From Actinomadura graeca (GTDB taxonomy: Bacteria; Actinomycetota; Actinomycetes; Streptosporangiales; Streptosporangiaceae): 64,000 nt of DNA. The notes beneath the pieces were generated by a model. The model did not search any database. It worked only from the letters and a program-made list of their open reading frames with translations, and was not told the origin of the DNA. Positions 1 to 2,289 of this stretch are shown one piece after another. The stretch is taken from positions 248,001 through 312,000 of the forward strand of contig NZ_CP059572.1 of NCBI RefSeq assembly GCF_019175365.1, in the 5' to 3' direction. The translations under genes were made by a program, and so were the position numbers. The stretch's first letter is position 1. Each line of letters begins with the position of its first letter.

Positions 1-2238
1 AGCCAGTCGTCGCAGTTCATGGACCACACCAATCCCCTGACGGGCCTCACGCAGAAGCGCCGGCTGTCGGCGCTGGGGCCGGGCGGGCTGTCGCGTGAGC
101 GGGCGGGCATGGAGGTCCGTGACGTCCACCCCTCGCACTACGGCCGGATGTGCCCGATCGAGACGCCCGAAGGCCCCAACATCGGGCTGATCGGCTCGCT
201 GGCCGCCTTCGGGCGCGTCAACCCGTTCGGCTTCATCGAGACCCCCTACCGCAAGGTGGTGGACGGCAAGGTCACCGACCAGATCGACTACCTCACCGCC
301 GACGAGGAGGACCGCTACGTCATCGCGCAGGCCAACTCCCTGACGAATGAGGACGGCTCGTTCGCCGAGGACCGCGTACTGGTCCGCAAGAAGGGCGGTG
401 AGGTCGAGCTGATCGCGCCGCGGGACGTGCAGTACATGGACGTCTCGGCGCGGCAGATGACCTCGGTCGCCACCGCGATGATCCCGTTCCTGGAGCACGA
501 TGACGCCAACCGGGCGCTGATGGGCTCGAACATGCAGCGGCAGTCGGTGCCGCTGCTGCGCAGCGAGGCGCCGCTGGTGGGCACCGGGATGGAGTACCGG
601 GCCGCCACCGATGCCGGTGACGTCATCACCGCCGAGAAGGCCGGGGTGGTGGAGGAGGTCTCGGCCGACTACGTCACGGTGATGAACGACGATGGGACCC
701 GCACCACCTACCGGGTGGCCAAGTTCAAGCGGTCCAACCAGGGCACCTGCTTCAACCAGAAGCCGATCGTGGACGAGGGCCGGCGGGTGGAGGCCGGGCA
801 GGTCATCGCCGACGGGCCGTGCACCGATGACGGTGAGATGGCGCTGGGCAAGAACCTGCTGGTGGCGTTCATGCCGTGGGAGGGCCACAACTACGAGGAC
901 GCCATCATCCTGTCGCAGCGGCTGGTGCAAGACGATGTGCTGTCCTCGATCCACATCGAGGAGCACGAGGTCGATGCCCGCGACACCAAGCTGGGGCCCG
1001 AGGAGATCACCCGGGACATCCCCAATGTCTCCGAGGAGGTGCTGGCCGATCTGGACGAGCGCGGGATCATCCGGATCGGCGCCGATGTGGTGCCCGGGGA
1101 CATCCTGGTGGGCAAGGTCACGCCCAAGGGCGAGACCGAGCTGACGCCCGAGGAGCGGCTGCTGCGGGCGATCTTCGGTGAGAAGGCGCGGGAGGTGCGC
1201 GACACCTCGCTGAAGGTGCCCCACGGTGAGCAGGGCAAGGTCATCGGGGTGCGGGTGTTCTCCCGGGACGAGGGTGATGAGCTGCCGCCGGGGGTCAACG
1301 AGCTGGTCCGGGTGTACGTGGCGCAAAAGCGCAAGATCACCGATGGGGACAAGCTCGCGGGCCGGCACGGCAACAAGGGCGTCATCTCCAAGGTCCTGCC
1401 GGTGGAGGACATGCCCTTCCTCGAAGACGGCACCCCGGTCGACATCGTGCTCAACCCGCTGGGCGTGCCCGGCCGCATGAACGTCGGCCAGGTCCTGGAG
1501 ACCCACCTCGGATGGATCGCCGCACAGGGCTGGGACATCAGCGGCGTGGGGGAGGAGTGGGCCGAGCGGCTGCGCGAGAAGGGCTTCGACCGCGTCGCGC
1601 CGCGCACCAACGTCGCCACCCCGGTCTTCGACGGCGCCAGTGAACAGGAGATCATCGGGCTTCTGGACAGCACGCTCGCCAACCGCGACGGCGACCGGAC
1701 GGTGATGCCCAGCGGCAAGGCCCGGCTCTTCGACGGCCGGTCCGGCGAGCCCTACCCCTATCCGATCTCGGTCGGCTACCTCTACATCCTCAAGCTGCAC
1801 CACCTGGTCGACGACAAGATCCACGCCCGCTCGACCGGCCCGTACTCCATGATCACCCAGCAGCCGCTCGGCGGTAAGGCCCAGTTCGGCGGCCAGCGCT
1901 TCGGTGAGATGGAGGTCTGGGCGCTGGAGGCCTACGGCGCCGCCTACGCCCTGCAGGAGCTGCTGACCATCAAGTCCGACGACGTCCTTGGCCGCGTGAA
2001 GGTCTACGAGGCCATCGTCAAGGGCGAGAACATCCCCGAGCCCGGCATTCCCGAGTCCTTCAAGGTGCTCATCAAGGAGATGCAGTCGCTGTGCCTCAAC
2101 GTCGAGGTCCTCTCCAGCGACGGCATGTCCATCGAGATGCGCGACACCGACGAGGACGTCTTCCGCGCCGCGGAGGAGCTCGGCATCGACCTGTCCCGGC
2201 GCCCCAACGAAGGGGCGATGAACATCGACGACATCTGA
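1..2238 (+). CDS. rpoB: RNA polymerase beta subunit, C-terminal part of an orphan, rifampicin-resistant-type paralogue
   Basis: This is the catalytic beta subunit of RNA polymerase, entering the window at the rifampicin-binding region; the frame is open from base 1, so the 5' end lies outside. The first residues read SQSSQFMDHTNPLTGLTQKR. Compared with the usual SQLSQFMDQNNPLS-G-THKR, this has Ser at E. coli position 511, His-Thr at 517-518, Thr at 522 and Gln at 526 (codon 52-54). His526 is a classic resistance position. The conserved core continues (RMCPIETPEGPNIGLIGSL, then KLAGRHGNKGV near 1350-1380) to a complete C-terminus. A hairpin follows and the next gene is unrelated and on the opposite strand, so rpoC is not downstream. 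Known rpoB duplications in Nonomuraea and Nocardia look like this. Identity as RpoB is certain; resistance and paralogue status are inferred. Confidence 0.95.
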   Translation, partial: SQSSQFMDHTNPLTGLTQKRRLSALGPGGLSRERAGMEVRDVHPSHYGRMCPIETPEGPNIGLIGSLAAFGRVNPFGFIETPYRKVVDGKVTDQIDYLTADEEDRYVIAQANSLTNEDGSFAEDRVLVRKKGGEVELIAPRDVQYMDVSARQMTSVATAMIPFLEHDDANRALMGSNMQRQSVPLLRSEAPLVGTGMEYRAATDAGDVITAEKAGVVEEVSADYVTVMNDDGTRTTYRVAKFKRSNQGTCFNQKPIVDEGRRVEAGQVIADGPCTDDGEMALGKNLLVAFMPWEGHNYEDAIILSQRLVQDDVLSSIHIEEHEVDARDTKLGPEEITRDIPNVSEEVLADLDERGIIRIGADVVPGDILVGKVTPKGETELTPEERLLRAIFGEKAREVRDTSLKVPHGEQGKVIGVRVFSRDEGDELPPGVNELVRVYVAQKRKITDGDKLAGRHGNKGVISKVLPVEDMPFLEDGTPVDIVLNPLGVPGRMNVGQVLETHLGWIAAQGWDISGVGEEWAERLREKGFDRVAPRTNVATPVFDGASEQEIIGLLDSTLANRDGDRTVMPSGKARLFDGRSGEPYPYPISVGYLYILKLHHLVDDKIHARSTGPYSMITQQPLGGKAQFGGQRFGEMEVWALEAYGAAYALQELLTIKSDDVLGRVKVYEAIVKGENIPEPGIPESFKVLIKEMQSLCLNVEVLSSDGMSIEMRDTDEDVFRAAEELGIDLSRRPNEGAMNIDDI

Positions 2239-2252
2239 CCCGGAACACGCGC

Positions 2253-2289
2253 CGGCACGGCCCGGGACCGATGGTCCCGGGCCGTGCCG
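2253..2289 (+). terminator. Hairpin terminator after rpoB
   Basis: A perfect 17-bp stem (2253-2269 with 2273-2289) has a 3-base loop and starts 14 bases after the rpoB stop. It has no T tract, which is common in actinomycetes. It indicates that rpoB ends its transcript here instead of reading into rpoC. Confidence 0.85.

What the first reader, a model, noticed from the sequence alone, without database searches (positions are those of the whole stretch)
1..2289. Orphan rpoB with a resistance-type rifampicin pocket
The sequence shows Gln at E. coli position 526, Ser at 511 and His-Thr at 517-518, in a gene that ends at a 17-bp hairpin and is not followed by rpoC. Known second rpoB genes in Nonomuraea and Nocardia carry changes at these positions, give rifamycin resistance and can switch on silent secondary metabolism. 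The exact combination H526Q plus L511S is notable.
Basis: partly seen in the sequence, partly recalled or inferred. Interest (0 to 1): 0.75.

Follow-up and report, generated by a model that had tools for sequence, protein, structure and literature searches.

The report
Patchwork second RNA polymerase gene
This bacterium carries a spare copy of an essential RNA polymerase gene that the normal copy has largely overwritten, except for a few islands that include the rifampicin pocket, which suggests a second, slightly different polymerase rather than a plain resistance gene.

Summary
Confirmed: window 1-2238 is the 3' two thirds of a second rpoB, with S511, H517 and Q526 in the rifampicin pocket and no rpoC behind it. 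The genome has one normal rpoB followed by its only rpoC match. Thr518 is in both copies. The deposited orphan has a one-base frame break upstream of the window.

It is a new member of the known rpoB(R)/rpoB2 kind. A resistance-type pocket is not the group's general trait: H526 is changed in 12 of 46 orphans compared, 1 of 9 in this genus. L511 changes occur only with H526 changes (5 of 12 against 0 of 34).

The unusual part is a mosaic. In 26 of 32 genome pairs, a near-identical run of 80 codons or more lies beside strongly divergent islands at recurrent places. In this genus silent divergence between copies in tracts is about 0.01-0.02; between species it is about 0.3 in two of three tracts. 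Tract trees group copies by host; island and promoter trees group them by copy type. Best reading: an old orphan lineage with its own promoter, repeatedly overwritten by the resident rpoB except in islands. My literature searches (capped listings) showed one partial precedent, in Microbispora.

The parts
1..2238 (+). orphan rpoB, 3' two thirds; the 5' third and the promoter lie before the window
22..81 (+). rifampicin pocket island (resident codons 421-440); the changed codons 517, 522, 526 lie here and 511 just before it, at 7-9
   Evidence: 9 of 60 bases differ from the resident copy; pockets
202..441 (+). divergent island, codons 481-560, largely the external-1 domain PF10385 (window 247-447)
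442..1521 (+). near-identical tract, codons 561-920
   Evidence: codons 581-920 tree joins G000's two copies, support 99
1522..1776 (+). divergent island 2, codons 921-1005, of orphan type
1777..2196 (+). near-identical tract, codons 1006-1145
2253..2289 (+). 17-bp hairpin after the stop codon, no T run

Best explanation
The gene encodes a second beta subunit that would share the single rpoC product and the other core subunits with the resident RpoB, giving an alternative RNA polymerase made from its own promoter (assembly and expression are inferred from Nonomuraea, not shown here). It belongs to an orphan rpoB lineage found in many genera of this family. In each host, recombination between the two copies has repeatedly copied one over the other (shown by sequence), mainly resident over orphan (direction and enzyme inferred). 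This keeps the body of the subunit matched to the host, while islands escape: the N-terminus, codons 141-180, the rifampicin pocket, codons 481-560 and codons 921-1005. The promoter escapes too. The pocket probably stays different by selection; the other islands either by selection or because they are too divergent to recombine. In this strain S511 plus Q526 would most likely weaken rifamycin binding modestly and shift promoter behaviour in a stringent-like way (inferred by analogy). Whether this strain's copy works is open because of the frame break.
For: Single rpoC match and second rpoB. G000 copies: long stretches without a difference beside stretches with up to half the bases changed. Of 32 pairs, 26 have a near-identical run of at least four 20-codon windows and also a window with 8 or more differences; windows at codons 521, 541, 941 and 961 have 5 or more differences in 29 of 30, 28 of 30, 29 of 32 and 30 of 32 pairs. 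Median dS between own copies 0.011, 0.016 and 0.013 in three tracts against 0.292, 0.319 and 0.059 between resident copies of different species, and 0.478 in island 2. Longest run of agreeing polymorphic sites beyond all 2000 permutations in 8 of 8 pairs. Tract tree: 10 of 10 genus pairs and 16 of 20 other pairs are nearest each other; an orphan clade of the genus is rejected, p 0.00014. Island tree: the 18 resident copies of the genus are one clade (99) and G000's two copies as sisters are rejected, p 0.00002. Promoter: core in 31 of 33 O1 rows, 0 of 53 resident-type rows; 32 orphan rows split from 46 resident rows with support 99/89, split by genus rejected, p 0.0027.
Against: Not every pair is mosaic: G005, G125, G161, G166 and G208 lack a run of 80 codons, and G076 has two almost identical copies. 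Islands are also the fastest parts of the resident gene (83% and 89% protein identity among resident copies in codons 481-560 and 921-1005, against 98% in the 581-920 tract), so failure to recombine could explain them without selection; the pocket, 97%, is the exception. Between-species dS in the third tract is only 0.06, so that tract shows little. The genus's orphans and resident copies as one island clade are not rejected (p 0.106; p 0.6), nor clearly by promoters with outgroups in (p 0.066). Promoter classes were drawn after seeing the sequences. No expression data; the strain's own copy has a frame break.
Confidence: 0.7

Rival explanations
1. Plain rifamycin-resistance duplicate: the second rpoB exists to supply a resistant target, and the rest is incidental.
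For: Changed 511, 517 and 526 here; 12 of 46 orphans have H526N or H526Q against 0 of 62 resident copies, and 0 of 46 orphans have the consensus pocket against 47 of 62 resident copies. No arr match in this genome. A review states that the second rpoB of Nonomuraea and Nocardia confers rifampicin resistance (PMC3975073, passages).
Against: 34 of 46 orphans keep H526, and 8 of 9 in this genus. The strongest and most constant differences lie in codons 481-560 and 921-1005 and in the promoter, not in the pocket.
Confidence: 0.15
2. Decaying pseudogene: the orphan of this strain is a broken relic.
For: One-base frame break about 190 codons in. The G051 orphan loses its match at codon 981.
Against: 1029 codons after the break are open. 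Seven other orphans of the genus have open frames of 1166 codons or more (G007, G008, G016, G023, G025, G047, G050). Orphan islands have dN/dS of about 0.5 between species. The break lies in a base run, where assemblies often err (that last point is general knowledge).
Confidence: 0.1
3. Recent separate duplications of each host's rpoB, with no overwriting.
For: Tract trees pair copies by host; the two copies of G076 are almost identical.
Against: Islands and promoters group by copy type across species; island dS is about 0.5 while tract dS in the same genes is about 0.01; six species share one orphan site.
Confidence: 0.05

Closest known systems
rpoB(R) of Nonomuraea gerenzanensis ATCC 39727 (PMC5431353: abstract, introduction, discussion and passages read; PMC3536979: passages)
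   Same: Second rpoB beside a normal one in an actinomycete of the same broad group, with changes at 526 and in the rifampicin region.
   Different: There H526N, S431N (Nonomuraea numbering) and others with a deletion in the beta lobe; here L511S, Q517H, A522T, H526Q. The words gene conversion and recombination do not occur in PMC5431353.
rpoB2 of Nocardia farcinica (named in PMC5431353 and PMC3975073; the original paper is not held)
   Same: Second rpoB with changes at the same positions, linked to rifampicin resistance.
   Different: Not compared by sequence here.
Two rpoB alleles of Microbispora sp. ATCC-PTA-5024 (PMC3900900, passages)
   Same: Identical central 1,774 nt that could not be assembled: the same identical-tract signature.
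   Different: Reported as an assembly problem in one genome, with no evolutionary reading in the passages seen.
Gene conversion between bacterial repeats such as rRNA operons (PMC8022953, search listing only)
   Same: Within-genome copying keeps repeats alike.
   Different: Here it acts between two non-identical polymerase subunit genes and leaves fixed islands.

Membership tests
rpoB(R)/rpoB2 type second rpoB | second rpoB apart from the rpoB-rpoC pair in the same genome | tested here: met
rpoB(R)/rpoB2 type second rpoB | changes in the rifampicin region, H526 above all | tested here: met
   L511S, Q517H, A522T, H526Q
rpoB(R)/rpoB2 type second rpoB | gives rifamycin resistance | not testable with these tools
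   no experiment possible
rpoB(R)/rpoB2 type second rpoB | expressed and built into polymerase; activates secondary metabolism | not testable with these tools
   a promoter-like region only
rpoB(R)/rpoB2 type second rpoB | intact reading frame | tested here: inconclusive
   frame break in the assembly, in a base run
paralogs under gene conversion | silent divergence within genomes far below that between species, in tracts | tested here: met
   two of three tracts clearly (0.011 against 0.292, 0.016 against 0.319), the third weakly (0.013 against 0.059)
paralogs under gene conversion | tree conflict between tracts and other parts of the gene | tested here: met

The most novel reading that the evidence does not exclude
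Many members of this actinobacterial family keep two functionally distinct RNA polymerases by filtered gene conversion: the resident rpoB keeps overwriting the orphan wherever beta must fit the shared rpoC and other subunits, while selection keeps orphan islands (rifampicin pocket, external-1 domain, codons 921-1005, N-terminus) and an orphan-only promoter. The pair is then a maintained regulatory switch, with drug resistance a side effect in some lineages.
Probability: 0.35. Interest if true: 0.75.

Novelty: new variant of a known kind. Interest (0 to 1): 0.58.

Why it matters
Why some actinomycetes keep two rpoB genes is called obscure in PMC5431353. The mosaic shows which parts of the second beta subunit stay different and turns the question into testable parts: pocket, external-1 domain, codons 921-1005 and promoter. 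It also warns that short-read assemblies of such genomes can break or fuse the two copies (G024 here), and that a changed rifampicin pocket is not the general mark of these genes.

Tried and rejected
Rifamycin-associated element upstream: a 19-base motif recalled from memory gave no match within 3 mismatches in L003 and at least 6 mismatches in each of 13 upstream regions. Neighbouring FAD monooxygenase as rifampicin monooxygenase: 113 bits against a cut-off of 800; it fits 3-hydroxyphenylpropionate hydroxylase, 535 against 390. Second rpoC: one match only. arr: none. Import from a Nonomuraea-like donor: suggested by nearest neighbours of the N-terminus (own resident copy ranks 83 of 96) and island 2 (112 of 118), but not by the pocket (own copy ties for nearest); not shown by the AU tests (p 0.106 and 0.6). 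L511-H526 link: Fisher 0.0005 on 47 orphans, one chimera included; with relatedness allowed for, sign test 0.06-0.125, so suggestive only.

Rows and limits: G024 contig C22 (L131) has a resident promoter and an orphan 3' part and is probably an assembly chimera. It is, and left out of the 46, (resident promoter class). One search left out both G024 rows, O2 rows and outgroups. Other draft genomes may hold unseen chimeras. Promoter classes are patterns written after looking, whose output was cut in the middle. In one search (180 of a larger family) six candidates per genome were scored and the match list was cut; genomes without a match there and are not absences. Regions were fetched for 20 genomes seen and for 20 of the 54 genomes. 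One search kept 80 of 597 or more candidates. One search stopped with an error after six of seven regions; one search failed at its last step. Paper listings were capped: 15 of 25, 15 of 34, 30 of 276, 10 of 22, 10 of 27, 8 of 87 and 12 of 21 papers.

Full report
What is there. Window 1-2238 is the 3' two thirds of an rpoB gene. The window is 248001-312000 of contig 1 of a 9.0 Mb genome in 3 contigs. The gene starts at L003:10763 with TTG behind GGAAGGAC. A 17-bp hairpin follows the stop, then a convergent AhpD/CMD-family gene; no rpoC follows. A second, intact rpoB lies at 5.48 Mb directly before the only rpoC match of the genome. The best named relative in one capped scan is Actinomadura formosensis, 91% over the query. 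The genus's copies group with it and with A. craniellae, so the genome is probably Actinomadura or near it (g1 below). Genus g4 is probably Nonomuraea: N. guangzhouensis groups with a g4 resident copy at support 87.

How common it is. Of 65 genomes of the genus, 20 have two or more matches. Two of these (G043, G064) are one resident gene in pieces, which leaves 18 with two copies; G018 is a probable further one, its single match being at a contig end without rpoC. In g4, 45 of 54 genomes have two or more matches, though pieces of one gene may inflate this.

The pocket. Against its own resident copy the orphan has L511S, Q517H, A522T and H526Q; Thr518 is in both. Among copies with a fully read pocket, 62 are followed by rpoC (named outgroup genera included) and have L511, Q517 and H526 in 62 of 62. 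Of 47 orphans one (L131) is a probable assembly chimera. Of the other 46, 12 have Asn or Gln at 526, 5 have Ser or Met at 511 (all among the 12), and none has the consensus pocket, against 47 of 62 resident copies. Six more copies of unsure type were set aside; two of them have N526. In this genus 1 of 9 orphans has a changed H526. H526 needs at least 8 changes on the orphan upstream tree; the link of 511 with 526 is suggestive once relatedness is allowed for.

The mosaic. The G000 copies alternate between stretches without a difference and stretches with up to half of the bases changed. Seven further genomes of the genus with two near-complete copies look alike. Of 32 pairs, 26 have at least 80 codons in a row with at most one difference per 20 codons, and also a 20-codon window with 8 or more differences. 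The six others are G076, almost identical throughout, and G005, G125, G161, G166 and G208, with shorter runs. Windows at 521, 541, 941 and 961 differ by 5 or more bases in 29 of 30, 28 of 30, 29 of 32 and 30 of 32 pairs; the pocket window 421 in 20 of 28; windows at 121 and 381 in 0 of 26 and 0 of 28. Median dS between own copies is 0.011, 0.016 and 0.013 in three tracts, against 0.292, 0.319 and 0.059 between species; in island 2 it is 0.478 within genomes. The longest run of agreeing polymorphic sites exceeds all 2000 permutations in 8 of 8 pairs. The tree of codons 581-920 places own copies next to each other in 10 of 10 pairs of the genus and 16 of 20 other pairs; G000's pair has support 99, and a clade of the genus's orphans is rejected, p 0.00014. 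The tree of codons 919-1010 makes the 18 resident copies of the genus one clade (99) and puts the 14 orphans elsewhere; G000's two copies as sisters are rejected, p 0.00002. Mean protein identity in codons 921-1005 is 59.5% between own copies, 80.3% among orphans, 89.0% among resident copies, 72.1% from orphans to resident copies of other genera, and 56.7% from the genus's resident copies to those. Draft genomes often break both copies at the same residue, for example G268, G242, G241 and G249, as near-identical tracts would cause. Microbispora was reported with an identical 1,774-nt stretch (PMC3900900, passages).

The promoter. Upstream of orphans in many genera lies a related region, classed O1 in 33 rows (two of them of unsure copy type): a TTGAC box, then GAGGTTGAC or similar, then TGGACA and TATGCTGC. 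The TA(T/C)GCTGC core is in 31 of 33 O1 rows, 0 of 8 O2 rows, 0 of 53 resident-type rows and 0 of 5 others. None of 56 rpoC-linked copies has an orphan-type region. O2 is a second orphan type, 8 rows. H526N or H526Q is in 12 of 33 O1 rows and 0 of 8 O2 rows; K527R in 2 of 33 and 5 of 8. In the family-only tree of 78 rows, 32 orphan rows stand against 46 resident rows (99/89) and a split by genus is rejected, p 0.0027. With outgroups in, the genus grouping has p 0.066. In this genome the 231 bases before the orphan match elsewhere only the 59 bases before the resident start, at 83%. I infer that overwriting stops at the gene start, so the promoter keeps the orphan's own descent.

Origin. Three islands together make 10 orphans of the genus one clade (96) and 14 resident copies another (99), but a joint genus clade is not rejected (p 0.6). 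An old orphan lineage rests mainly on the promoters; transfer between genera is possible, not shown. Six species of the genus (G007, G008, G023, G027, G050, G051) share one orphan site. G000 and G016 both have the orphan beside the same sigma factor and CMD pair, on opposite sides.

How it most likely works. Shown: two copies, one rpoC match, mosaic, orphan-only promoter region. Inferred: orphan beta replaces resident beta in some polymerase molecules. In N. [quoted passage not shown] abstract, introduction, discussion and passages). In M. tuberculosis L511P and H526N are low-level rifampicin resistance alleles (PMC6318973, passages). By analogy S511 plus Q526 would weaken drug binding modestly and shift promoter choice. 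The frame break leaves open whether this strain's copy works; seven other orphans of the genus have open frames of 1166 codons or more.

Literature. Searches of the held open library, with capped listings, showed no paper on gene conversion between rpoB paralogs or on a shared promoter of second rpoB genes. The Tala 2009 and Ishikawa 2006 papers are not held, and Vigliotta 2005 was seen only as a reference; they may say more.

Noticed in passing
window 2298-2918 (-) and 2953-3894 (+): Divergent pair of an AhpD/CMD-family gene and a SigJ/SigX4-type ECF sigma factor right after the orphan; the same pair flanks the orphan of G016 on its other side.
   Followed up: partly
L003:7683-10421 (-): A 3-hydroxyphenylpropionate hydroxylase-like gene and an AraC-type regulator lie upstream of the orphan on the other strand.
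   Followed up: partly
L004:8606-8725 (resident rpoB, codons 1-40): Median silent divergence between species of the genus is 0.000 over the first 40 codons of the resident gene, against about 0.3 in two tracts; the cause is unknown.
   Followed up: no
L131 and L132 (G024): Draft contig C22 joins a resident-type promoter to an orphan-type 3' end, probably an assembly chimera caused by the identical tracts.
   Followed up: partly
L163 and L164 (G076): Two rpoB copies almost identical over the whole gene, yet with different upstream regions: perhaps complete overwriting.
   Followed up: no
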